DNA from: Enterobacter sp. Ag1
GTDB lineage: Bacteria; Pseudomonadota; Gammaproteobacteria; Enterobacterales; Enterobacteriaceae
Length of the DNA: 36,892 nucleotides
Assembly: GCA_000277545.1 (NCBI GenBank)
Contig: AKXM01000012.1
Coordinates: 1-36,892 of the forward strand
Direction: 5' to 3'
Part shown: in pieces, positions 25,557-36,597 of the stretch
Numbering within the stretch: the stretch's first letter is position 1
How the letters are laid out: each line of letters begins with the position of its first letter
The notes under the pieces: model-generated
Told to the model about the DNA's origin: nothing
Databases searched by the model: none
What the model saw: only the letters and a program-made list of their open reading frames with translations
Position numbers and translations under genes: made by a program

Positions 25557-26345
25557 ATGGCTAACTCTCGTTCTATTGCGGTCATTACCGGCGCATCTTC
25601 CGGTATTGGTGCGGTTTATGCCGATCGTTTTGCGGCCCGAGGTTTTGATCTGCTGCTGGTTGCCCGGCGCGAAGATCGCCTGCGCGATCTGGCCGCGAAG
25701 CTTGAAGCCCGCCACGGCATAACCGTGACTACGCTAAAAGCCGATCTGGTTAACGACCAGGACATTGCCGCCGTTGAGGAGGCCCTGAAAGATCCGCGCA
25801 TCAGCGTGCTGGTTAACAACGCGGGCACCGCCCACAGCGCAGCGTTTACCGCCGCCAGCGTGGAACAACATCAGGCGCTTATCACGCTGAACATCACGGC
25901 GTTAACTCGCCTGAGCCATGCCGCCCTGCTTAATTTCCAGCAAAAGAACAGCGGCACGCTAATCAATATCTCGTCGATTCTGGCAGTACAGAGCTGGGTG
26001 GGCAGCGCGGTATACAGCGGCACAAAGGGCTATGTATTGAACCTGACGAAAGTTCTGCAGGCCGAAGCTGCCGGCACCGGCATTCGTATTCAGGCGGTGC
26101 TGCCCGCGGCTACGGCAACCGAAATTTGGGATCGTGCGGGCGTGTCGGTGGACTCATTGCCGGAAGGTGCGGTCATGAAAGTGGATGATTTGGTGGATTC
26201 CGCCCTGGCCGGACTGGACAGCGGGGAAGCTGTCACCATCCCGCCATTGCACGATCTCGGCCTGTGGGAAACCTATGCCACTACGGCGCAGGCGATGTTT
26301 GATGCGGCAGGCGTAGGGCAGCCAGCGCCTCGCTACGCCCGCTAA
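25557..26345 (+). CDS. Short-chain dehydrogenase/reductase (SDR)
   Basis: 262 aa. Cofactor motif TGASSGIG (residues 11-18), NNAG in the fourth strand, and catalytic Ser plus YSGTK (Tyr and Lys) place it in the classical SDR family; the Arg residues after the second strand (RREDR) suggest NADP(H). Substrate unknown. The ATG at 25557 follows GTGAGGTGTTTT; an in-frame GTG at 25545 lies inside that ribosome site. Likely controlled by the upstream HxlR regulator. Confidence 0.88.
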   Translation: MANSRSIAVITGASSGIGAVYADRFAARGFDLLLVARREDRLRDLAAKLEARHGITVTTLKADLVNDQDIAAVEEALKDPRISVLVNNAGTAHSAAFTAASVEQHQALITLNITALTRLSHAALLNFQQKNSGTLINISSILAVQSWVGSAVYSGTKGYVLNLTKVLQAEAAGTGIRIQAVLPAATATEIWDRAGVSVDSLPEGAVMKVDDLVDSALAGLDSGEAVTIPPLHDLGLWETYATTAQAMFDAAGVGQPAPRYAR

Positions 26346-26439
26346 TTTTCCCGGGCAGATGTCGCCGGCATCTGCCCATCATTTACTGGCCGCCATGTCT
26401 CGCTATAATGAGGCAAATTCCTGCCAATATGATGCTGTG

Positions 26440-26589
26440 ATGAAACTGTTTTACTATTCAGCCGCAGGCATGGTTGCTGCGCTGATTGTGCTCTGGGGAG
26501 CGCTGATTGTGGACAGCGCCAATATCCTGCAACAAATGTCCGAGCTGATGCACTACATCGAAGATTTGTTCAAACCTCGCGAACGCTAG
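26440..26589 (+). CDS. Possible small membrane protein
   Basis: 49 aa: a short N-terminus, one strong hydrophobic helix (AAGMVAALIVLWGALIV) and a polar tail ending FKPRER. A TATAAT at 26404-26409 could be its -10. The ribosome site is weak. Its stop codon shares the bases CTAG with the stop of the convergent dihydroorotase gene. Frame is open further upstream to 26359, but the helix-containing part from ATG 26440 looks more like a real protein. Unrecognised. Confidence 0.4.
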   Translation: MKLFYYSAAGMVAALIVLWGALIVDSANILQQMSELMHYIEDLFKPRER

Positions 26590-27935
26590 CGGTTAAACGC
26601 CAGCGCCTGGCCGTAAATCCCCTCGGCAACTGACTCGCCGTCCCAGACGAGGTGCCCGTTCACCAGCGTGCTTTCAACCACGCCGCCCTGCAAGGTGTGC
26701 CCTTCGAAGGGTGACCAGCCGCATTTGTAGGCAATATTACTGCCCTCAATGCTGGCGCGTTTCCAGGGGTTGATCACCGCCAGATCGGCCCAGTAACCTT
26801 CCCGGATATAGCCGCGATCCTTAATCTGAAAACGTTCGGCTACCGCGTGGCTGGTTTTTCTGACGATAAGTTCAGGCGTGAAAATCCCTCTGGCACACAT
26901 ATCCAGCAGCGCAGGCAGCGCGTGCTGCACCAGCGGCAATCCCGACGGAGCCAAGAAATAATCATTCTGCTTTTCCGCCAGCAAGTGCGGCGCATGGTCG
27001 GTCGCAATAATATCAATCACGCCAGTCTTAACTGCCTGCCATAGCGCCCGCTGGTGTTCCTGGCCCTTCACCGATGGGTTGCACTTCAGCCTGTGCCCCA
27101 ACGCCGCGTAATCATCCTGATTAAAATAGAGGTGATGGATACAGGCTTCCGCCGTGATCGTTTTTCTGCGTAAGGCTTCAAGCGTGGGCGCGGGCTCAAA
27201 CAACGCCAGCTCATCGGCCGTGGTGATATGCAGCACATGCAGCCGCGTGCCGTGCTTTTTCGCCAGCGCGACCGCCCGGGAAGATGAAAGCAGGCAGGCC
27301 TCAACCGAGCGAATAGCTGCGTGTTCTGCGGCCGGGATCTGCTCCCCATATCGCTTTCGCCACAGCGCCTCATTACGTTTGATAGTCGGCGTATCTTCGC
27401 AATGCGTGGCCACCAGCCCCGGCGCATGCTGGAAAATAGCCTCCAGAATGCGTTCGTCATCCACCAGCATGTTGCCGGTGGAGGCACCCATAAACACTTT
27501 TACGCCGCAGGCGGCATCGGCTGGCAGCGCCTTAAGTTCTTCCAGATTGTCGTTGGTGGCACCGAAATAGAAACTGTAATTGGCCAGTGAACCTTCGGCG
27601 GCCCGCTGAAATTTGCCTTCCAGCGCCAGTCTGGTGGTGGTCGGCGGCGAAACGTTGGGCATTTCCATATAGCTGGTGATCCCGCCCATCACCGCCGCGC
27701 GTGACTCGCTGGCAATCGTGCCCTTATGCATCAACCCCGGTTCACGAAAATGTACCTGATCGTCTATCATGCCCGGCAGCAGCCACTTCCCGGCAAGATC
27801 GCGCACATTCCACGTGGTGCGAGCCGGGATCGCAGCGGCTATTTTTTCAATTCGCCCGTCCACGATGAGCAGATCGCCCTGGTAACGCCGATCCTCATTC
27901 ATCATCAGCGCGTTGGTCAGTAACAGAGGTTTCAT
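26586..27935 (-). CDS. Bacteroidetes-type dihydroorotase (PyrC2-like), Zur-linked
   Basis: 449 aa, amidohydrolase superfamily. The metal motif that normally reads DxHxH is D58-D-Q60-V-H62-F-R-EPG: the first zinc His is Gln, as in Bacteroidetes dihydroorotases. The bridging Lys146 (GVKVFMGASTGN), His178 (ATHCE), His236 (LHVLHIT) and Asp313 (ATDHAPH) are kept. It should cyclise carbamoyl-aspartate to dihydroorotate in pyrimidine synthesis. I chose the ATG at 27935 (GGAG upstream); 15 codons of open frame precede it. Last gene of the six-gene operon, so probably a substitute for zinc-dependent PyrC. Confidence 0.85.
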   Translation of the reverse strand: MKPLLLTNALMMNEDRRYQGDLLIVDGRIEKIAAAIPARTTWNVRDLAGKWLLPGMIDDQVHFREPGLMHKGTIASESRAAVMGGITSYMEMPNVSPPTTTRLALEGKFQRAAEGSLANYSFYFGATNDNLEELKALPADAACGVKVFMGASTGNMLVDDERILEAIFQHAPGLVATHCEDTPTIKRNEALWRKRYGEQIPAAEHAAIRSVEACLLSSSRAVALAKKHGTRLHVLHITTADELALFEPAPTLEALRRKTITAEACIHHLYFNQDDYAALGHRLKCNPSVKGQEHQRALWQAVKTGVIDIIATDHAPHLLAEKQNDYFLAPSGLPLVQHALPALLDMCARGIFTPELIVRKTSHAVAERFQIKDRGYIREGYWADLAVINPWKRASIEGSNIAYKCGWSPFEGHTLQGGVVESTLVNGHLVWDGESVAEGIYGQALAFNR

Positions 27936-27966
27936 TAGTCGTTTTCTCCGGCTTAAAAAGGCTGCG

Positions 27967-28965
27967 CTAGCGTCGGGCAACCATCACAACAATAAACAGC
28001 CCGCCAATTCCGGCGGTAATAATGCCGATGGGCAGCTCCTGCGGCGCAACCAGCACCCGGCTGACCAGATCGCCGCCGCACAACAAACAGGCCCCGACAA
28101 GGGCACACAAAGGCAGCAGCCTGGCGTGCTTAATGGCGGAAAAATGGCGGCAAAGATGCGGCACCATCAGCCCGACAAAGCCAATCACGCCGGTCAGTGA
28201 TACAAAAATGGCGGTCGAAAAAGCGCAGCACAGAAAAATTTCGGTGCGCAGGCGGGTCACGTTAATGCCCAGCGAAAATGCGGTGCGATCCCCCGCGAGC
28301 AATCCATCCAGCGATCGCCATCTCAACAGGCAAAATGCGGCCAGCAGCAGCAAACCGCCCAGCGCAAATCCCAGGTTATCCCATCGCGCCAACCCCAGGC
28401 CGCCGAGCGACCAGAATAAAACCGAGCTGGCCGTACGCTGGTCACCGGCGAATATCAGGTAGCTGGTTAACGCCCCGAACAAGAAAGAGATCGCCAGCCC
28501 GCAAATAATCAGCGTTTCGGCACCCCGATCGCGTTTGAGCTGGAATAAAGACAGCACCGCAACCGAAGAAAGCAGCCCGCCGCCAAAAGCGGCCGCCGGT
28601 AGCGTCCAGACGCCGAAGAAGTCGCCGAAGCGGGTAAAAACCAGCACCGCTCCGGCAGACGCGCCCGAAGAAAGCCCGAACAAAAAAGGGTCCGCCAGCT
28701 CATTGCGCGTGGCCGTTTGCAGCAGCGTGCCCACCACCGCCAGCCCCGCGCCGGTCATCAGGGCGAGAAGCGTTCTGGGCAGCCGGATGTCCAGCACGAT
28801 CCCACGAATCATCGGTGAAATGTCCGTTGCCGTCGGTTGCAGCGCGTTTACCACCTGATTCAGGCTGAGCCGGACCGAGCCTTCCGTTAAGCTAAGCACC
28901 GCAAACAATATGACGAGAAACCCCGCCAGGCATGCGGCCCGGCGGTAACGCCAGGCTAAAACCAT
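27967..28965 (-). CDS. ABC importer permease, FecCD/BtuC family
   Basis: 332 aa, about nine to ten membrane helices, with the family segments LDIRLPRTLLALMTGAGLAVVGTLLQTATRNELADPFLFGLSSGA and GVIGFVGLMVPHLCRH. It is the channel of a siderophore, heme or cobalamin-type importer. The ATG at 28965 overlaps the stop of the binding-protein gene (TGATG), a sign of translational coupling. Fifth gene of the operon. Confidence 0.92.
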   Translation of the reverse strand: MVLAWRYRRAACLAGFLVILFAVLSLTEGSVRLSLNQVVNALQPTATDISPMIRGIVLDIRLPRTLLALMTGAGLAVVGTLLQTATRNELADPFLFGLSSGASAGAVLVFTRFGDFFGVWTLPAAAFGGGLLSSVAVLSLFQLKRDRGAETLIICGLAISFLFGALTSYLIFAGDQRTASSVLFWSLGGLGLARWDNLGFALGGLLLLAAFCLLRWRSLDGLLAGDRTAFSLGINVTRLRTEIFLCCAFSTAIFVSLTGVIGFVGLMVPHLCRHFSAIKHARLLPLCALVGACLLCGGDLVSRVLVAPQELPIGIITAGIGGLFIVVMVARR

Positions 28966-29918
28966 CACTGTGCCGCGAACAGAACGCGAGCGAGCTTCTC
29001 AACCGCGGCGATATTTGCCGGGCCGGGCGTCAACTCGGCGTACTGCAGCTTAAGATAGCGGTGCTGTTTCACCGCCGGGGTGAGCTTCATCAGCGGGTGG
29101 CGCTCAAGGAACTGGCGGAGCGAATCAGCGCCCCCGCCGGTCTGGTAATCCAGCAGAATGATGACATCCGGCTCGGCCGCCGCAACATTTTCCCAGGAGG
29201 TTGTCCCCCAGCTGGTGTCCAGCCCTTCCATGGCGTTTTTACCGCCAGCGGCCTCGATAATGGCCTGCGGCATGGCGTATTTTCCGCTGGTAAACGGTTT
29301 GTCTTCCCCGGAGTCATACACAAAGACTTTCAGTGGCCTTGCGCCCGGCAGTGCTTTGGGGAGGGCGGCCAGCCGCGCTTTCCAGCCGTCAACCAGCTTC
29401 TGAGCAACCTCCGCCTTACCAAAAATTTTGCCAAGCGTAAGCTCATCGTTATAGAGCAGATCCAGGGTCGCCTTGGTTTTGCTTTCCCCGGAAATCGCGC
29501 AGCTTTCGCTGAGCACAAAGGTTTTGATGCCGTATTTGGCAAGACTTTGGGGTGTAACGTCGCCCCCCACTTTCATGCCGTAATTCCAGCCCGCGAAAAA
29601 GAAATCTGGCTCGGCGGCCAGCAGCGTTTCAAGCGAGGGGTATTTGGGCGCAAGTTCGGGGATCGTCCCCATTTGTCGCTTAAATTCGGGCGTCATTTTG
29701 TACCAGCCGGAGATGCCGGTCAGACCCACAATCTGCGGCTGTAAATCCAGAGCAAAAGCCATCTCCGACATGTTCAGGTCGTTGATTACCGCCCGCTTTG
29801 GTGCTGCGGTAAAGACAATGGGTTTACCGCAGCTCTCAATGGTCACCGGGAAGCCGGAGGCAAAGGCAGTAAAGGAGGTAAAGGCCAGCCAGAAGCCGGT
29901 AGCGATTTTTAACATCAT
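28965..29918 (-). CDS. Periplasmic binding protein of the ABC importer (PF01497 type)
   Basis: 317 aa. Signal peptide MMLKIATGFWLAFTSFTAFA, with no lipobox Cys. The fold is the two-lobed FepB/BtuF family: AVINDLNMSEMAFALDLQPQIVGLTGISGW, PSLETLLAAEPDFFFAGW, and ENVAAAEPDVIILLDY. It is not ZnuA-like: there is no His-rich loop. Start chosen at 29918, after AGGGA and before a proper signal; the frame extends 26 codons upstream into the ATPase gene. Ligand not readable; context says zinc or a metal chelate. Confidence 0.9.
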   Translation of the reverse strand: MMLKIATGFWLAFTSFTAFASGFPVTIESCGKPIVFTAAPKRAVINDLNMSEMAFALDLQPQIVGLTGISGWYKMTPEFKRQMGTIPELAPKYPSLETLLAAEPDFFFAGWNYGMKVGGDVTPQSLAKYGIKTFVLSESCAISGESKTKATLDLLYNDELTLGKIFGKAEVAQKLVDGWKARLAALPKALPGARPLKVFVYDSGEDKPFTSGKYAMPQAIIEAAGGKNAMEGLDTSWGTTSWENVAAAEPDVIILLDYQTGGGADSLRQFLERHPLMKLTPAVKQHRYLKLQYAELTPGPANIAAVEKLARVLFAAQ

Positions 29919-29934
29919 AGCGATCCCTGAAAAT

Positions 29935-30732
29935 TTACCGTGGGCGTGAAGGTTCAAAAAAACGGACTCGTCTGCCTTGCTGGCCTGGATGGTCAACGGT
30001 AAAGCTGTCGAGGCCGAAAATGGGGCGAAGTGTTTCGGTATTCAGCGCGGCGTCGGGCACGTTAAAAGCCTGCTGTTGCCCCGCCGACAAAATAAGGACC
30101 TTGTCAGCAAACCCTTCGATTAAGTTGAGATCGTGCAGGACGGCGATAACCGTTGTGCCGCGAGCTTTCACCAGCGCTAACAGTTCTTCCCGTGCCGCCA
30201 GGTCCAGATGATTAGTCGGCTCATCCAGTAACAGTAGCCGGGAGGTTTGCGCCAGCGTTCGCGCCAGAATTGCCCGCTGCCTTTCCCCGCCGGACAGACA
30301 GGCCAGCGATTTATGCCGCATCCCGAGCACACCAACCTCTTTCATCGCCCCACACACAATGCAGCGATGTTCTGGCTCCGGCATATCACGGGCAAACGGG
30401 AGCCTGCCTAACGCGACATAATCCTCAATGGAGAGACGCAAATCGGGGAGATCGTTTTGCGACATGACCGCCACGAGCTTCGCCCGCAGCTGCGGGTTGA
30501 GCTTATTTAAGGGGCGGCCCGCCAGCGTTATTTCCCCCTCGGCCTTTAGTTCCTGGCTCAGCGCCCGCAGCAGCGACGTTTTGCCGCTGCCGTTTGGCCC
30601 AATCACGCTGAGCCGCTCACCTTTTCTCAGGTGAAAATTAATCGCCACCGGCCAGGCTGCGCCCTGCGGACGGGCAATCGCCCGCAGGGAAACGCTTAAC
30701 TCGGCTGCTGGTTCTCCGGGGGAAAAAGGCAT
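29935..30732 (-). CDS. ABC importer ATPase, FecE/BtuD family
   Basis: 265 aa. Walker A GPNGSGKT (45-52), signature LSGGERQR (146-153), Walker B LLLLDE (166-171) followed by PTNHLD, and the His switch in AVLHDLN. It energises the neighbouring permease. Starts 2 bp after the carbonic anhydrase stop. The segment HRCIVCGAMKEVG has an extra Cys pair; its meaning is unknown. Confidence 0.93.
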   Translation of the reverse strand: MPFSPGEPAAELSVSLRAIARPQGAAWPVAINFHLRKGERLSVIGPNGSGKTSLLRALSQELKAEGEITLAGRPLNKLNPQLRAKLVAVMSQNDLPDLRLSIEDYVALGRLPFARDMPEPEHRCIVCGAMKEVGVLGMRHKSLACLSGGERQRAILARTLAQTSRLLLLDEPTNHLDLAAREELLALVKARGTTVIAVLHDLNLIEGFADKVLILSAGQQQAFNVPDAALNTETLRPIFGLDSFTVDHPGQQGRRVRFFEPSRPR

Positions 30733-30734
30733 GC

Positions 30735-31295
30735 TCAGAACTCGTTGCGCAGCAGTTGGTAACCTTCCACCAGCTTGACGTTGGTGTTGGCCACCTCTTC
30801 AGAAAACTGCACCGAAGCGGGGTCAACCCGTGAATAGTGGCTTAAATCAGAGTCGGGCCCCACGCGCTCGGTGGACGGAATATACGTTTGCTTCGGCAGT
30901 GTCACCCCATCAACCACCGCGTTGTAGCGAATGACGCAGCCGGTTTGTACGTGGCAGTTAAAAAGTACGCTGTTAAAGCCGATAAACACCCGCTCGTCGA
31001 CCCGGCAAGGGCCGTGCACAATCGCCCGGTGCGCAATCGACGTACCGCTGCCAATGGTCACCGGCGCCCCGCTTTTCGAGTGAATCACCACGCCGTCCTG
31101 AATATTCGAATGGGAATGGATCACGATAGGATCCATGTCGCCTTCGGCGTTCAGCTCATCGGCGCGGATCACCGCATAGGGCCCGACATAAACATAGTCA
31201 TGAATAATGACCCGGCCACAAATCACCGCCGTGGGGTCGATATACGCTTTGGGAGAGACCTGCGGCAGATGGCCTGAAGGGTTTTTACGCAGCAT
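30735..31295 (-). CDS. Gamma-class carbonic anhydrase-like protein (left-handed beta-helix)
   Basis: 186 aa of hexapeptide repeats. The three metal ligands of gamma-carbonic anhydrases are kept: His72 (VVIHSKSGAP), His89 and His94 (IAHRAIVHG), with NIQDG before them. It should hydrate CO2 and trimerise. Gamma enzymes can work with Fe2+ or Co2+ instead of Zn2+. The start at 31295 has AGGAAAT upstream and overlaps the folE2 end by 11 bp; the open frame reaches 31361, inside folE2. Operon position 2. Confidence 0.85.
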   Translation of the reverse strand: MLRKNPSGHLPQVSPKAYIDPTAVICGRVIIHDYVYVGPYAVIRADELNAEGDMDPIVIHSHSNIQDGVVIHSKSGAPVTIGSGTSIAHRAIVHGPCRVDERVFIGFNSVLFNCHVQTGCVIRYNAVVDGVTLPKQTYIPSTERVGPDSDLSHYSRVDPASVQFSEEVANTNVKLVEGYQLLRNEF

Positions 31296-32223
31296 GGTGA
31301 TTTCCTGTCCAGTGAATGCGGGCCACCGCGTTGTGCGCATGGAGGCTTTCCTGATGCTCAACGCGAAGGGTAAAAGCGGTGCTAAAAGGCGCGTCCTGCA
31401 TCGCCTTGTTCAGGCGGCGAGCGGCGTCTTCGCAAAACATCAAATTTTGGCCATTGGCCAGGGCGAAGGCCTGCTCGTCGCTACGCTTAACCACCGTTTG
31501 CACCGCCGTGCCAAGCGCGGCCTCGCAGCGGTCGATAAGTTCCTCGAAAGGCAACGTAGCAACATCCGGCTTCAGCTGGCAGCTAACCCACGCCCAGCTT
31601 CTCTGGCTGTGGGGCGTGCCCGGCATGCCCTTCTCGCCCAGCCAGGCCAGCATTTCTTCGACGGACACGCCCTCCTTTCGCGAGCCAAAGTCCCGCTGAA
31701 ACTGCTGCTGCGCGAGATTGCGACTCAGCGCCGCCGAGGCCGGACAGGTAGATGAATACGGGATCCCCACCCGAAGCGTGACGGCAAAACCTTCCCCACG
31801 CTCCGCCAGGATTCGGATGGGGTAAGCCTTCCAGCCAAAGTGGTTTGAGGTTAAAGATTTGCGGGACAGCAGCAGTTCGCCGGTGATTTCCACGCTGGCG
31901 CGGTCGCTGCTGCGCTGGTGCGAAACCAAAAATTCTCCCAGTAAACGGCGCAGTACCGCCGGCGTAATTTCGCCCTGGGTTAGCTCGTCCAGCAGCAGAT
32001 AAATCCGGGACATATGAATGCCCTTTTCCGCTTCCGGGGAACGGAGAAGATTGATCCCGGCGTTGACTTTCGCCGTCAGCGGGCGCCCCGCGACCTCCAC
32101 CGGAAGGTCGATTTGTTCCATGCCAACCCAGGACAGGGCCATGTCGAAATCGTGGCTTCTGAGTGACTGAATATCAGGCAGCATTTTGGGGCATAACATT
32201 GGAGTGACCGTCATATTGCACAT
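31285..32223 (-). CDS. folE2: GTP cyclohydrolase IB (FolE2)
   Basis: 312 aa, FolE2 (GCYH-IB) family. Conserved pieces: PVEVAGRPLTAKVNAGINLL, the segment HQRSSDRASVEITGE, Cys160 in PYSSTCPASAALSR, and the C-terminal HAHNAVARIHW. It makes dihydroneopterin triphosphate from GTP, the first step of folate synthesis, without the strict zinc need of FolE. Start: ATG 32223 gives 312 aa; ATG 32214 is possible; neither has a strong ribosome site. First gene of the operon, 13 bp after a Zur-like operator. Confidence 0.93.
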   Translation of the reverse strand: MCNMTVTPMLCPKMLPDIQSLRSHDFDMALSWVGMEQIDLPVEVAGRPLTAKVNAGINLLRSPEAEKGIHMSRIYLLLDELTQGEITPAVLRRLLGEFLVSHQRSSDRASVEITGELLLSRKSLTSNHFGWKAYPIRILAERGEGFAVTLRVGIPYSSTCPASAALSRNLAQQQFQRDFGSRKEGVSVEEMLAWLGEKGMPGTPHSQRSWAWVSCQLKPDVATLPFEELIDRCEAALGTAVQTVVKRSDEQAFALANGQNLMFCEDAARRLNKAMQDAPFSTAFTLRVEHQESLHAHNAVARIHWTGNHHAA

Positions 32224-32236
32224 CGTCTTGCTGTAA

Positions 32237-32262
32237 TTTTGTTACGTTATAACATAACAAAA
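32237..32262 (-). promoter_or_regulatory. Zur box over the folE2 promoter
   Basis: A 26-bp near-perfect palindrome with half-sites TTTTGTTACGTTA and TAACATAACAAAA (one mismatched pair). Within it GTTATAACATAAC matches the Zur core GTTATA-N-TATAAC in 12 of 13. On the minus strand -35 TTGCAC and -10 TATAAC flank or overlap it at 18-bp spacing, so bound Zur would block polymerase. Confidence 0.8.
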
Positions 32263-32461
32263 CTCATTTGTGCAAAGCGACATTTTGCCGTAAAGCGAAC
32301 CCGCCCGATCACCGGAGAAAATTCGGTGTAAAACCGCTGATTGGCTCGATATATCTTATCACCCGGCAAGTGTTGCCCGAGTGTTCACACAATGATAGCA
32401 TTATGTAAACAGCCATTTAGACGGCTAGACAGTTAAACTAAAAAGCATTGAGGAATACCGT
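32263..32461. other. Control region between folE2 and mtnB
   Basis: No gene seen. It contains the folE2 -35 on one strand and the MetJ-like boxes for mtnB on the other. Confidence 0.5.
32419..32434 (+). promoter_or_regulatory. MetJ boxes upstream of mtnB
   Basis: Two adjoining 8-bp units, AGACGGCT (7 of 8 to AGACGTCT) and AGACAGTT (5 of 8). MetJ binds tandem met boxes, with SAM, to repress methionine genes; mtnB starts 27 bp downstream. Confidence 0.55.
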
Positions 32462-33073
32462 ATGTGGCAAGAAAGGCTCACGCAGTTGGTCAGCACCTGT
32501 CATTGGATTGGCGCTAAAGGCTGGGCTCCGGCGACCGGCGGCAATATGTCCATTCGCCAGGATGCCGAGTGGTGCTGGCTGAGCGAATCCGGGCGCGACA
32601 AAGGCAGCCTGACCAGCGAGGATTTCCTGCAGGTAGACATTGCCACGAATCAGGCGCCATCGGGGCGTAAACCCTCCGCCGAAACCGGACTGCACACGCT
32701 GGTTTATCGGCTTTTTCCTGAAGCAAACGTCGTGCTGCACGTCCACACCGTGAATGCCACCGTGCTGTCGCGGATTGAAAAAGGCCCGGCGTTGAACATC
32801 AGCGGCTATGAAATGCAAAAAACCCTGATCGGCCAGCAGACGCACCTCGACACGGTGCCAATTGCTATCTTCGATAACGATCAGGACATCGATGCGCTGG
32901 CAAAACGCATTGAACGGCATGCCGAACAGGCTCCCCTGAAATACGGTTTCCTGCTGCGTGGCCACGGCCTGACCTGCTGGGGCAAAGACGTCGCCGAAGC
33001 ACGTCGTCAGCTTGAAGGGCTCGAATTCCTGTTTGAATGCGAAATGCAGCGCCGCCTGTACGAGCGCGATTAG
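32462..33073 (+). CDS. mtnB: Methylthioribulose-1-phosphate dehydratase MtnB
   Basis: 203 aa, class II aldolase fold. GWAPATGGNMSIR opens the domain; metal ligands are His93 and His95 (VLHVHTVNAT) and the His in LLRGHGL, with Glu74 in PSAETGLH. It dehydrates methylthioribulose-1-phosphate in the methionine salvage pathway. GAGGAATACCGT precedes the ATG. mtnC and mtnD, normally beside it, are not in the window; the next gene converges from the right. Confidence 0.9.
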   Translation: MWQERLTQLVSTCHWIGAKGWAPATGGNMSIRQDAEWCWLSESGRDKGSLTSEDFLQVDIATNQAPSGRKPSAETGLHTLVYRLFPEANVVLHVHTVNATVLSRIEKGPALNISGYEMQKTLIGQQTHLDTVPIAIFDNDQDIDALAKRIERHAEQAPLKYGFLLRGHGLTCWGKDVAEARRQLEGLEFLFECEMQRRLYERD

Positions 33074-33101: not shown

Positions 33102-34289
33102 TCAGGTTTCATCTTCGCTGAGCGGCACGGGCAAATTTATCGTCATCAGCAACCCGCCCTCAGCAGGCAGGCCGGCGTGGATATCCCCGTGGTGCGCATG
33201 ACAGATTTCTCTGGCAATAGAAAGCCCCAGCCCGCTGCCGCCTGAATCTCTTGCCCGCGAACGCTCCCCGCGGGTGAAACGCTCAAAAATATGCGGCAGA
33301 TAATCCGCGGCGACGCCAGGCCCGCTATCAAGAAACTGGATTTCAATGCCCTGCTTAAGATGGCGAAAGCGAATGGACATGCGATCGCCCCTGCTGCAAT
33401 AGCGAAGCATGTTCTCAATGATAATGGTGAAGACCTGCCCCAGTCGGGCTTCATCTCCTGAGTAATAGAATTCATCTTCCGCCTCCACCGAGACGGACAT
33501 CCCGGCCGCTTCCAGCTGGGGTTTTAGCCATGCTACCCGTTCATTCAGGACTTCAGAAAGCGAGAATACGCCGTGCTGGAGCGAGAGTTGCCCCGCGCTC
33601 GCCAGGGAAAGGAAATGCAAATCATCAGTCAGGTGGCTGAGGTTTTTTAGCTGCGTCATCACCATATTCAGCTGTTTTTCATCCGCCGGAAACACATGGT
33701 CGATCATGCCCTGCAGCCGCCCCATAGCGGCGGTAAGCGGTGAGCGCAGTTCATGTGCGGCCGCGACGTGCGCGGCCTTAAGCTCGCGTTCGTACAGCGC
33801 CAGCTGGCTAATCATTTTATTGAAGTTGCTGGCAAAGCGAGTCACCTCCGCCGGGCATTCATCCACCCGTTTTGCCTGTTGATTGAAATCCCCCTGAGCC
33901 ACTATCTCCGCGACGTCCGTCAGGCTGCGAAACTGCGCGGCAAGCGGACGCGTGGCGCGTAAACAGCTGACGATCACAAATGGGGTCGCCATGGAAATAA
34001 AGATAAACAGCCAGCCCCAGTTGAGAGAGCTGATGGAAGGCGTGCTGTATTCAATTCCCCAGCGGGCATCCACAATTTGATGAAAACGAACAATGTCTAA
34101 GTCAGGGTTCGCCCGCAGCGTCAGAAACTCCTGGTAAGCGGCAGGCGACATGTGATGCACAACCCAGTAATACTGAACCGCGTAGATGCTCCACATCGCC
34201 AGCACGATGAAAAACAGTACGCTGACGGCCACCACGATGATACGAATCGATATCCACAGCAGGAGCGATTTGCTCTTTTTGTTGTTCAT
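33102..34289 (-). CDS. Sensor histidine kinase
   Basis: 395 aa. Two membrane helices (about 10-35 and 92-112) enclose a periplasmic loop of about 55 residues. Then HAMP (RATRPLAAQFRSLTDVAEIVAQGDF), HisKA with His179 in AAAHELRSPLTAA, and HATPase motifs: N box IIIENMLRYC, G1 DSGPGVA, G2 GGSGLGLSI. The layout resembles AdeS/BaeS kinases. Start overlaps the end of the response regulator gene (34286-34289, ATGA), so they are coupled. Signal unknown. Confidence 0.92.
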   Translation of the reverse strand: MNNKKSKSLLLWISIRIIVVAVSVLFFIVLAMWSIYAVQYYWVVHHMSPAAYQEFLTLRANPDLDIVRFHQIVDARWGIEYSTPSISSLNWGWLFIFISMATPFVIVSCLRATRPLAAQFRSLTDVAEIVAQGDFNQQAKRVDECPAEVTRFASNFNKMISQLALYERELKAAHVAAAHELRSPLTAAMGRLQGMIDHVFPADEKQLNMVMTQLKNLSHLTDDLHFLSLASAGQLSLQHGVFSLSEVLNERVAWLKPQLEAAGMSVSVEAEDEFYYSGDEARLGQVFTIIIENMLRYCSRGDRMSIRFRHLKQGIEIQFLDSGPGVAADYLPHIFERFTRGERSRARDSGGSGLGLSIAREICHAHHGDIHAGLPAEGGLLMTINLPVPLSEDET

Positions 34290-34984
34290 GGTTTGCAGAA
34301 CCTGTAGCCAATGCCGCGTACGTTCAGAATGAGATTATCAACTCCCGCCGCCTCAAGCTTTTTCCTTAAGTTATAGACATGCGTGTCCACCACTCGCTCC
34401 AGAGCGTCGCTTTCCGGGAGACACTCTTCGAGCAAAAACTGGCGGCTGAGCGGCCTCGTCGAGGCACGCATTAGCGTTTTCAAAATAGAAAACTCGGTGA
34501 GCGTTAAATCCAGGCGCAGGGGAGGATGTCCCTCATGCAACACCTGCGCCGCCAAATTGGTGACATCAACCTCCAGTGGACCCCAGCGTAAAACATCTTC
34601 AGCGGGGAGTTGGCTGGCCTGGCTGCGCCTGAGCACGGCCTGCACCCTGGCCATGACTTCGCCGGGATTGTAGGGCTTGACCACATAATCATCGGCGCCA
34701 TAGCGTAAAGCGCCGATCTTGTCATAGGGTTCGCCCATGGCGGTGATCATGATGACGGGCGTATTGCCCTTTCGCCTGACGGCCGCAAGAATTTCCGTGC
34801 CGTTCATCCCGGGGAGCATGACGTCCAGCAAAATAAGATCGGGCTTCCAGGTAACCACCGTGTTCATGCCCGCCAGGCCATCCCCGGCCACCGAAACGCT
34901 ATAGCCTTCGCGTTTAAGATAGGCCTCCAACACATTTGCCGCATCAGCGTCGTCTTCAATCACCAGGACCCGTTTATTTTTCAT
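34286..34984 (-). CDS. OmpR-family response regulator
   Basis: 232 aa. Receiver domain with acidic Glu10-Asp11-Asp12, phospho-acceptor Asp54 (LILLDVMLPG), Thr81 and Lys103 (VVKPYN). The C-terminal winged helix contains LTEFSILKTLMRASTRPLSRQFLLEECL and RVVDTHVYNLRKKLE...VRGIGYRF. Upstream of its kinase gene and divergent from the MipA gene, which is its likely target (inference). Confidence 0.93.
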   Translation of the reverse strand: MKNKRVLVIEDDADAANVLEAYLKREGYSVSVAGDGLAGMNTVVTWKPDLILLDVMLPGMNGTEILAAVRRKGNTPVIMITAMGEPYDKIGALRYGADDYVVKPYNPGEVMARVQAVLRRSQASQLPAEDVLRWGPLEVDVTNLAAQVLHEGHPPLRLDLTLTEFSILKTLMRASTRPLSRQFLLEECLPESDALERVVDTHVYNLRKKLEAAGVDNLILNVRGIGYRFCKP

Positions 34985-35110
34985 TTAATGTTACCTTGAC
35001 AGTTTCTTCACAAATCCCTGGTCGTTCATTGATAAGCCCTCAGCATAATCCTTTTACTTACTGAGCTAAGTATGCACAAAAAATATAAACACCTGACGAT
35101 GAGAATCATT

Positions 35111-35899
35111 ATGTTAACGAAGAAAAGCACAAAATACATAATTGCACCGCTGATAATTTCCAGTATTTCATCATCGTATGCAAGTGAATTTAATTCTGAT
35201 CAAACCGTGACAACCTTTGGCCTCGGAGCTATATCCTCTCCACGATACAGCGGAGCTAATGAACAAAACACCAGTGTTATTCCACTGATACACATTCAGA
35301 TGAGTAATATCTTCTTTGATTCCATGAATGGGCTTGGCATTCATCTTCAAAGCGATAATGGTTTATATTTCGAGCCAACATTGGGTTACGATTCAGGCCG
35401 CGCGGATAAAAATTCAGGCTGGCGAAAAGGCTCGAATAAACTTAAAGGCATGGGGGATATTTCGTCTACGGTCAATTCGGGTATTGCGCTTGGCTGGGCC
35501 GTCGCCCCCTGGCTGGTTTTTGAAGGTAAAACAACTCTGCCGTTAAATGATGATCAGGGCGTATCTTATTCCACAGCCATAAATTATATCCCGATTATGA
35601 ACGAAGTTAATACGCTTACATTTCAGGCCAGCGCATTATTTGGTGATGCCCGTTATATGAATACCTGGTACGGCGTCAACGAACAGCAGCACAACCGATC
35701 AGGTTTCTCGCGCTACAGCAGCGCCGGTGGGTTTTACGGCACTGACACCAGCCTGACACTGACCCATCAGTTCAGCGAACACTGGGGAGGCTTGTTTAGC
35801 CTGAGCTATGCCTGGCTTGATAAGAAAGCCTCCAACAGCCCCATCGTCATGAGAAAAGACGGTACGACCGGTATGCTTGCCATCAATTATACGTTCTGA
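35111..35899 (+). CDS. MipA/OmpV-family outer-membrane protein
   Basis: 262 aa from ATG 35111; ATGs at 35072 and 35099 are also in frame. From 35111 the N-terminus is a normal signal (MLTKKSTKYIIAPLIISSISSSYA). The body alternates as in a beta-barrel and ends in Phe (LAINYTF). The family name comes from MipA, a scaffold for MltA and PBP1B; others are linked to antibiotic response. It is AT-richer than its neighbours. Divergent from the two-component genes with an 87-126-bp gap. Confidence 0.85.
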   Translation: MLTKKSTKYIIAPLIISSISSSYASEFNSDQTVTTFGLGAISSPRYSGANEQNTSVIPLIHIQMSNIFFDSMNGLGIHLQSDNGLYFEPTLGYDSGRADKNSGWRKGSNKLKGMGDISSTVNSGIALGWAVAPWLVFEGKTTLPLNDDQGVSYSTAINYIPIMNEVNTLTFQASALFGDARYMNTWYGVNEQQHNRSGFSRYSSAGGFYGTDTSLTLTHQFSEHWGGLFSLSYAWLDKKASNSPIVMRKDGTTGMLAINYTF

Positions 35900-35948
35900 T
35901 TTCTTTTGCCATTGTGTATTCATTACAACAACAGGCCGAAGCATCGTT

Positions 35949-36230
35949 ATGAAGACCGCGCTTATTGTGATTTTCACCTTCGTGGCATTTCTCTCCTCCA
36001 CGGGAGTTCATGATTTTAAAGCATGCCTGTACGAAAAGGGTGATTTTAACGTCTGTAATAATACAGACGTTAAAAGTATACATTCAAAACACCCTCCGAA
36101 ACCACCCTTATATAAAAACAACGTCAGGCGTTGCCATTCAGATAAAACAAAAAACATCGATCGTTATATTTTATCCTGCCATCTTAGAAATTTCATTAAA
36201 TCGCTACTGCAGCGTTCAACGCGTAACTAA
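35949..36230 (+). CDS. Possible small secreted protein
   Basis: 93 aa. MKTALIVIFTFVAFLSSTGV looks like a signal peptide, and the remainder has four Cys (ACLYEKG..., DFNVCNNT, VRRCHSD, LSCHLR), enough for two disulfides. No clear ribosome site; the frame is AT-rich. Unrecognised. It may be a chance frame upstream of the RamA-like gene. Confidence 0.35.
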   Translation: MKTALIVIFTFVAFLSSTGVHDFKACLYEKGDFNVCNNTDVKSIHSKHPPKPPLYKNNVRRCHSDKTKNIDRYILSCHLRNFIKSLLQRSTRN

Positions 36231-36258
36231 GCATTTACTAACACTGAGAGATATCAGC

Positions 36259-36597
36259 ATGAAGATTTCCGCCAAAGTCATAGAAACCATCACCGGCTGG
36301 ATAGATAATAATATTCATCGTCGATTACGAATAGAGGATATTGCTCGCTATTCTGGCTACTCTAAATGGCACTTCCAGAGAATTTTTTTATATTATAAAG
36401 GCGAAAGTATTGGCCGATACATCAGAATCAGAAAATTACAGCTGGCGGCACAGGATCTCAAAAATACCCAGGAACGAATCGTCGATATTTCGGTGAAGTA
36501 CGGCTTTGACTCACAGCAGAGCTTTAACCGGCTGTTTACCCGCAGCTTTAAGATGTCGCCAGGAACTTACAGGAAAGCTAAAGGTGTACGAGGGTGA
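36259..36597 (+). CDS. RamA/MarA-like AraC-family activator
   Basis: 112 aa with two HTH motifs and no sensor domain, as in MarA, SoxS and RamA: IARYSGYSKWHFQRIFLYYKG, then GRYIRIRKLQLAAQDLKNT and YGFDSQQSFNRLFTRSFKMSPGTYRK. It reads closest to RamA, which turns on efflux and porin-regulating genes. Activity is set by expression level. The frame is open upstream to 36010, but the ATG at 36259 matches the family start (ISAKVIETITGWIDNN). No RamR-like repressor gene is beside it here. Confidence 0.85.
   Translation: MKISAKVIETITGWIDNNIHRRLRIEDIARYSGYSKWHFQRIFLYYKGESIGRYIRIRKLQLAAQDLKNTQERIVDISVKYGFDSQQSFNRLFTRSFKMSPGTYRKAKGVRG

What the first reader, a model, noticed from the sequence alone, without database searches (positions are those of the whole stretch)
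26586..32262. Six-gene Zur-controlled zinc-starvation operon
folE2, a gamma-carbonic anhydrase, a FecBCD-type ABC importer and a Bacteroidetes-type dihydroorotase are packed with overlaps or gaps of at most about 30 bp, behind one near-perfect Zur palindrome. FolE2, PyrC2-type dihydroorotases and gamma-carbonic anhydrases are known as substitutes for zinc enzymes in Zur regulons. Joining three substitutes to their own importer in one transcript is a complete survival kit for low zinc: import, folate, pyrimidine and CO2/bicarbonate. No COG0523 GTPase gene is present in the operon.
Basis: partly seen in the sequence, partly recalled or inferred. Interest (0 to 1): 0.8.

Follow-up and report, generated by a model that had tools for sequence, protein, structure and literature searches.

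The report
Zinc-starvation operon of Cedecea bacteria
A row of six genes behind one zinc-sensor switch probably lets a Cedecea bacterium swap in stand-ins for zinc enzymes and turn on an importer when zinc runs low; the parts are known, and packing them into one compact operon is a modest new arrangement.

Summary
On the minus strand, folE2, a gamma-carbonic anhydrase, an ATPase, a binding protein, a permease and a PyrQ-type dihydroorotase are packed with gaps of -11, 2, 16, -4 and 31 bp behind an 18-bp Zur-type operator. The genus is Cedecea. The same operator precedes zigA and type B L31 elsewhere in the genome, which also has Zur and zinc-type FolE, PyrC and beta-carbonic anhydrases. Five genes are kept in 8 of 8 Cedecea genomes, the dihydroorotase in 5 of 8. 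Zur control and a back-up role are very likely; no expression data exist.

Three corrections. The binding protein has 2 histidines in 317 residues and folds like haem, siderophore and B12 binders, so it probably takes a chelate, not free zinc. A COG0523 GTPase (ZigA) exists elsewhere, behind its own Zur box. The kit is not new: folE2-gammaCA-pyrQ and the importer type are both published as Zur-controlled in Pseudomonas, and a 24-kb Superficieibacter island holds relatives of all six genes. I found the exact six-gene order only in Cedecea, within capped searches. Interest is modest.

The parts
32241..32258 (-). Zur-type operator, GTTATGTTATAACGTAAC on the minus strand (palindrome extends over 32237-32262); 17 bp before the folE2 start; contains TGTTATAAC, an extended -10-like string (inference by eye; the consensus scan found no promoter-like site on this strand)
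   Evidence: exact in 7 of 8 Cedecea genomes, one change in the eighth
31285..32223 (-). folE2, GTP cyclohydrolase IB, 312 aa; keeps C160, H205, E250, E292, H295, H297 at the positions aligned to C147, H159, E201, E243, H246, H248 of the structure-known FolE2 3d2o (which of these bind metal is recalled)
30735..31295 (-). gamma-class carbonic anhydrase (CcmM/Cam type), 186 aa, three metal His H72, H89, H94 kept; overlaps folE2 by 11 bp
29935..30732 (-). ATP-binding subunit of a FecBCD/BtuCDF-type importer, 265 aa
28965..29918 (-). periplasmic substrate-binding protein (Peripla_BP_2), 317 aa, N-terminal hydrophobic stretch like a signal peptide (by eye); only two His in the protein
27967..28968 (-). 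permease of the FecCD family, 333 aa; overlaps the binding-protein gene by 4 bp
26586..27935 (-). PyrQ/PyrC2-type dihydroorotase (PRK09236), 449 aa; first metal His replaced by Gln (Q60-V-H62), K146, H178, H236, D313 kept; same substitution in PDB 2gwn
   Evidence: present in 5 of 8 Cedecea genomes

Best explanation
This is a Zur-repressed zinc-starvation operon of Cedecea. With enough zinc, Zur with bound zinc sits on the operator and blocks a promoter that overlaps it. When zinc falls, Zur leaves and one message is made for six proteins. FolE2 takes over from zinc-dependent FolE, PyrQ from PyrC, and the gamma-carbonic anhydrase from the two beta-carbonic anhydrases; these use another metal or need less zinc, so zinc is freed for other proteins. 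The ABC importer brings in more zinc, most likely as a chelate rather than the free ion. Shown by sequence: gene content, packing, operator, its conservation, and presence of Zur and of the zinc-dependent counterparts. Inferred: single transcript, promoter position, Zur binding, induction by low zinc, metal use of the enzymes, and the importer's cargo.
For: Gene identities and packing. Operator fits the E. coli Zur motif; 0 of 100 shuffles. Whole genome: 6 sites at up to 3 mismatches, 0 for the reversed-pattern control. Besides this operon they lie before zigA (NF038288, 686 bits, cut-off 600), type B L31 (110 bits, cut-off 86), an AztABC-like importer (275 and 209 bits, cut-offs 350 and 220), a TonB receptor (177 bits, cut-off 223.5) with a FecB-type importer, and an HflK/band-7 gene pair. 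Zur: 182 aa, 328 bits, cut-off 167, beside a MatE gene. Counterparts: FolE, PyrC and two beta-CAs, each over its family cut-off. Conservation: folE2-gammaCA-ATPase-SBP-permease in 8 of 8 Cedecea genomes, box exact in 7 of 8 with variable flanks. Importer: in 39 of 77 usable loci of the 80 named ones the box (up to 3 mismatches) lies within 350 bp upstream of the ATPase gene; 100 control palindromes gave a mean of 0.03 and a maximum of 2 (at up to 4 mismatches 42 of 77, control mean 0.32, maximum 13). Published: PA5539-5541 (folE2, gammaCA, pyrC2) up 93.6-, 37.6- and 37.9-fold on zinc depletion in P. aeruginosa, in a Zur-regulated cluster (passages, PMC4542158).
Against: No expression or binding data. 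The binding protein lacks a zinc-ion site of the known kind: 2 His in all, one of them invariant in 27 homologues. The gamma-CA keeps all three metal-binding His, so it may not be zinc-independent. PyrQ is missing in 3 of 8 species. 38 of 77 importer loci show no box at this threshold directly upstream; 4 of these (L053, L060, L085, L087) have it before an upstream gene. The consensus scan found no minus-strand sigma-70-like promoter in 26300-32600 and found 8 minus-strand terminator-like hairpins, 7 inside the permease gene and 1 inside the binding-protein gene; over both strands 14 were found against 7.9 in shuffles.
Confidence: 0.8

Rival explanations
1. The importer carries a cobalt compound (a corrinoid or other cobalt chelate), which supplies a replacement metal instead of zinc.
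For: The permease is nearest to F420-0/BtuC/FhuB/FecC-type models, the binding protein's fold neighbours include BtuF, and Pederick et al. raised this for PA2911-2914 because of B12-permease homology and raised cellular cobalt in a znuA mutant (passage).
Against: BtuF is not the best fold or sequence match (two binders of unstated ligand from Jonesia and Veillonella come first). The operator is Zur's. Homology at this distance does not give the cargo.
Confidence: 0.15
2. The importer is an iron- or haem-chelate system that came under Zur because FolE2, gamma-CA and PyrQ work with iron.
For: Fold neighbours are siderophore and haem binders; the gamma-CA of Methanosarcina contained iron when purified anaerobically (stated in Haas 2009, section read).
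Against: In 17 other named genera the importer has a Zur box directly upstream while no relative of these enzymes was found in the fetched stretch. Pederick et al. state that iron-limitation studies in P. protegens did not associate the homologous cluster with iron recruitment (passage).
Confidence: 0.1
3. The six genes are neighbours but not one transcript: the importer or pyrQ has its own promoter.
For: Importer genes stand apart from these enzymes in most of the 80 named loci, pyrQ is absent in 3 species, the largest gap is before pyrQ (31 bp), and terminator-like hairpins lie in the permease gene.
Against: Gaps of 2, 16 and 31 bp and overlaps of 11 and 4 bp; no minus-strand promoter-like site and no second Zur box found inside, though the same scan also missed a promoter before folE2.
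Confidence: 0.1

Closest known systems
PA5539-PA5541 of Pseudomonas aeruginosa (folE2, PaCAgamma1, pyrC2/pyrQ)
   Same: Same three enzymes, same order folE2-gammaCA-pyrQ, reported as Zur-regulated and induced by zinc depletion (passages in PMC4542158, PMC10393844, PMC13261364)
   Different: No importer between gammaCA and pyrQ; DksA2, AmiA and COG0523 genes in the same cluster instead
PA2911-PA2914 of P. aeruginosa (TonB receptor plus FecBCD-type importer)
   Same: Same importer type by description, Zur-controlled, binding protein of cluster A-II thought to take a chelate (passages); its sequence was not compared here
   Different: Has its own TonB receptor gene; not joined to the isozymes
Zinc island of the Superficieibacter chromosome (L082, L160) and of Klebsiella plasmids (L158, L050; Haas 2009 names such a Zur cluster on pLVPK)
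   Same: folE2 overlapping gammaCA (gammaCA 92% identical), pyrQ 74%; in Superficieibacter the same importer too, with several Zur boxes. L050 has the importer near zigA, cobW and folE2
   Different: About 24 kb (Superficieibacter) or 17 kb (L158), genes on both strands, with hisI2, zigA, cysS2, dksA2, thrRS2, hemB2 and zur-like genes; L158 has no importer in the stretch read, L050 no gammaCA or pyrQ in the stretch read
   Same: An importer in one same-strand run with substitutes: zigA, TonB receptor, the same importer, cobW, folE2, hisI2, ZIP, ZrgA (L127); cobW-dksA2-importer behind one Zur box (L060); AztABC-like importer, COG0523, gammaCA frame, Zur-like, HisI (L157)
   Different: None has folE2, gammaCA and pyrQ together; the L157 importer is of the ZnuA type and its gammaCA frame carries stops
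cobW1 operon Op0317f_1 of Cupriavidus metallidurans
   Same: One Zur-controlled operon with a FolE2-type enzyme, a carbonic anhydrase and an amidohydrolase annotated allantoinase (passages, PMC10882993)
   Different: Has COG0523, CysS2 and QueD; no importer mentioned in the passages seen

Membership tests
Zur regulon member (gammaproteobacterial Zur box) | Operator of the form RNNNYRNNRYNNYRNNNY close to the start of the first gene | tested here: met
   32241-32258, 17 bp before folE2
Zur regulon member (gammaproteobacterial Zur box) | A Zur protein in the genome and the same operator before other zinc-starvation genes | tested here: met
   Zur 328 bits, cut-off 167
Zur regulon member (gammaproteobacterial Zur box) | Binding by Zur and induction by zinc depletion | not testable with these tools
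   needs bench work
GTP cyclohydrolase IB (FolE2) | Profile above curated cut-off and catalytic/metal residues kept | tested here: met
   297 bits, cut-off 215; residues at aligned positions; their roles are recalled
gamma-class carbonic anhydrase (Cam/CcmM type) | Left-handed beta-helix hexapeptides and three metal His | tested here: met
   Hexapep in Pfam, H72, H89, H94, alignment to 3kwc
gamma-class carbonic anhydrase (Cam/CcmM type) | NCBIfam carbonic anhydrase equivalog cut-off | tested here: not met
   NF040597 110 bits, cut-off 380; NF053794 111, cut-off 550; NF050158 56, cut-off 250; so a relative, not an equivalog of those models
PyrQ/PyrC2-type dihydroorotase (PRK09236) | Profile above cut-off, altered HxH metal motif | tested here: met
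   680 bits, cut-off 535; Q60-V-H62
PA2911-2914-like FecBCD importer | FecCD permease, ATPase and siderophore/B12-type (cluster A-II) binding protein under a Zur box | tested here: met
   direct sequence comparison with PA2911-2914 not made
PA2911-2914-like FecBCD importer | Adjacent TonB-dependent receptor | tested here: not met
   none in the operon; a Zur-box TonB receptor lies elsewhere in the genome (L140)
Zinc-ion ABC importer (ZnuABC/AztABC, cluster A-I binding protein) | Zinc-ion binding protein with His ligands | tested here: not met
   2 His in 317 aa; no ZnuA-type protein among the 50 fold matches listed of 1264

The most novel reading that the evidence does not exclude
The importer and the three enzymes form one metal-swap unit: the importer brings in a chelate of the very metal (cobalt or iron, or chelated zinc reserved for them) that FolE2, the gamma-carbonic anhydrase and PyrQ use as cofactor, so import and metalation are coupled in one transcript without a COG0523 chaperone in it.
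Probability: 0.1. Interest if true: 0.65.

Novelty: new variant of a known kind. Interest (0 to 1): 0.3.

Why it matters
It shows how a zinc-saving regulon that is scattered or spread over a large island elsewhere can be packed into one regulated unit. For medicine or ecology the consequence is modest: zinc shortage is met by a mechanism already known in outline.

Tried and rejected
Chance palindrome: rejected, 0 of 100 shuffles and 0 for the genome-wide reversed-pattern control. Recent transfer from a Klebsiella plasmid, suggested by the 92.5% identical gammaCA: rejected, because third codon positions of that gene agree at only 45% and folE2 and pyrQ are 69% and 74% identical; the gammaCA is simply very conserved. 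(BLASTP gave 71% over 301 aa for folE2; the codon alignment gave 69% over 311.) Operon unique in joining importer and substitutes: rejected (L060, L127, L157, Superficieibacter). Class search with the gammaCA at E up to 1e-45: 4 of 369 genomes including the own one. Around two of the other three (L155, L156) no other gene of the operon matched; the third (L157) is the zinc cluster described above. Searching E. coli genomes by DNA gave nothing. A paper search for Cedecea with Zur and zinc gave 0 papers; no title listed in the other searches names Cedecea. These cover open-licence PMC papers only. Limits: of 581 confirmed relatives only the best 80 were kept; TonB receptors were sought with one Comamonas query only, so 5 of 80 is a lower bound; homologues of folE2, gammaCA and pyrQ were sought only in the fetched stretches, mostly 18-21 kb.
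Full report
WHAT IS THERE. The six genes lie on the minus strand as described. FolE2 and the dihydroorotase pass curated NCBIfam cut-offs. The gamma-carbonic anhydrase, ATPase, binding protein and permease are assigned at fold or Pfam level only. The junctions are -11, +2, +16, -4 and +31 bp. Upstream of folE2 is one near-perfect palindrome, 24 of 26 bases, whose 18-bp core fits the motif RNNNYRNNRYNNYRNNNY derived from the E. coli Zur-DNA structure (PMC4219657, passages seen; fit checked). It is the only such site in the window, with 0 in 100 shuffles.

WHERE IT COMES FROM. The window is a whole contig of a 4.75 Mb genome in 64 contigs. A sister genome of the same genus (G006) carries the binding-protein gene at the same place on a contig of the same length, 4,876,800 bases, as Cedecea davisae DSM 4568. 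All 8 genomes of the genus held have folE2-gammaCA-ATPase-SBP-permease in this order. The dihydroorotase follows in 5 of 8 (own, G001, G004, G005, G007); a genus search at E 1e-40 found it nowhere in the other 3. In the 8 genomes the operator is exact in 7 and changed at one base in one, while the sequence around it varies.

IS IT A ZUR OPERATOR? In the whole own genome the pattern with up to 3 mismatches gives 6 sites and the reversed control none. The other five lie before: zigA, a COG0523 GTPase (686 bits, cut-off 600); type B ribosomal protein L31 (110 bits, cut-off 86); an AztABC-like importer (below the models' cut-offs); a TonB-dependent receptor (below cut-off) with a FecB-type binding protein, a methyltransferase and a permease; and an HflK/band-7 gene pair whose second product has a His-rich N-terminus. 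Zur itself is encoded on another contig (328 bits, cut-off 167) beside a MatE gene. So the operator marks the zinc-starvation set of this organism. Zur control of the operon is very likely but not shown.

ARE THE ENZYMES SUBSTITUTES? The genome has a zinc-type FolE, a homodimeric PyrC and two beta-carbonic anhydrases, each over its family cut-off. FolE2 keeps the catalytic and metal residues at positions aligned with the structure 3d2o (which residues matter is recalled). The dihydroorotase has Gln for the first His of the HxH metal motif, as has PDB 2gwn; its Lys, three other His and Asp are kept at the ligand positions. Haas et al. 2009 state that the Zur-regulated PyrC paralogue lacks conserved zinc ligands yet its kind has shown activity (PMC2770081, section read). 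The gammaCA keeps all three metal His, so it may use iron, cobalt or zinc; independence from zinc is not shown.

WHAT DOES THE IMPORTER CARRY? The binding protein has only two His in 317 residues. One His is invariant among 27 close homologues and none among 18 more diverse ones. Its AlphaFold model (mean pLDDT 88) is closest to binders 4mlz, 4n01 and 5cr9, then to haem, siderophore and B12 binders. Zinc-ion binders (ZnuA type) are not among the 50 matches listed of 1264. Published work on PA2913 came to the same view: cluster A-II, probably a chelate, with cobalamin as an alternative (PMC4542158 and PMC10393844, passages seen); I did not compare its sequence. The regulatory link is strong. 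Of 80 named loci, 77 could be tested, and 39, from 18 named genera plus one unnamed Vibrionales, have the box within 350 bp upstream of the ATPase gene; 100 control palindromes gave a mean of 0.03 and a maximum of 2. Of the 11 fetched loci of other genera among the relatives, 6 have the box before the importer, and so has a Cronobacter plasmid (L051). So import of a zinc chelate is the best guess, and the cargo remains open. The operon has no outer-membrane receptor; the Zur-box TonB receptor on another contig (L140) may serve it (inference).

HOW NEW IS IT? folE2-gammaCA-pyrQ is a published Zur-regulated gene set in P. aeruginosa. PA2911-2914 is the published importer. Pederick et al. note that the Pf-5 isozyme cluster includes an ABC importer (passage), and Haas et al. 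describe clusters that mix zinc transport, zur and isozymes. Among 80 named loci, folE2 lies within the fetched stretch in 3, gammaCA in 1 (C. davisae), pyrQ in 1 and a COG0523 gene in 13. The Superficieibacter chromosome carries importer, hisI2, zigA, cysS2, cobW, dksA2, folE2-gammaCA, thrRS2, pyrQ and hemB2 within about 24 kb with several Zur boxes. A Klebsiella plasmid stretch (L158) has the same island without the importer; another (L050) has the importer near zigA, cobW and folE2. On plasmids, gammaCA relatives are in 601 records (558 Klebsiella), pyrQ relatives in 612 (562 Klebsiella) and binding-protein relatives in 1258 (579 Klebsiella, looser limit). Limnohabitans (L127) and Raoultella (L060) join the same importer to other substitutes, and an unnamed gammaproteobacterium (L157) joins an AztABC-like importer to COG0523, a broken gammaCA frame, a Zur-like gene and HisI. 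I found the exact six-gene order only in Cedecea, within these limits: 98 genomes searched with the binding protein, 18 of them fetched besides the own one, and the best 80 of 581 confirmed named loci. It is a compact variant of a known kind.

ORIGIN. The gammaCA is 92.5% identical to the plasmid one, but third codon positions agree at only 45%. FolE2 and pyrQ (against the plasmid) and the binding protein (against Superficieibacter) are 69-77% identical. The shared parts are therefore old relatives, not a recent transfer. The operon may be a condensed island or an older nucleus from which islands grew; the data do not decide.

Noticed in passing
L140:1471-6292 (own genome, contig 4): A second FecBCD-type importer behind a Zur-like box, with a TonB-dependent receptor, a methyltransferase of unknown role and a binding protein 27% identical to the one in the operon; possible zincophore system.
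   Followed up: partly
L142:4923-7897 (own genome, contig 40): Two HflK/band-7 proteins, the second with a His-rich N-terminus, behind a Zur-like box with 2 mismatches. HflK/HflC-type genes PA2437-2439 also rise in zinc depletion in P. aeruginosa (table passage).
   Followed up: partly
L139:4888-6108 (own genome, contig 30): ZigA-type COG0523 GTPase directly behind its own Zur-like box; so the chaperone absent from the operon is present in trans.
   Followed up: yes
   Followed up: partly
L087:13235-14457 (Phytobacter massiliensis): zigA appears as two adjacent open frames in the zinc island; described only.
   Followed up: no
window 33102-36597: AdeRS-like two-component genes (below the models' cut-offs) beside a MipA-family gene and a RamA-like AraC regulator just below the model's cut-off (178.1 of 180).
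   Followed up: no
window 32462-33073: A methylthioribulose-1-phosphate dehydratase (mtnB) gene, divergent from the operon. In the sister genome L032 three ORFs of 150 aa or more lie between mtnB and the sensor kinase gene, while in the window the two are adjacent.
   Followed up: partly
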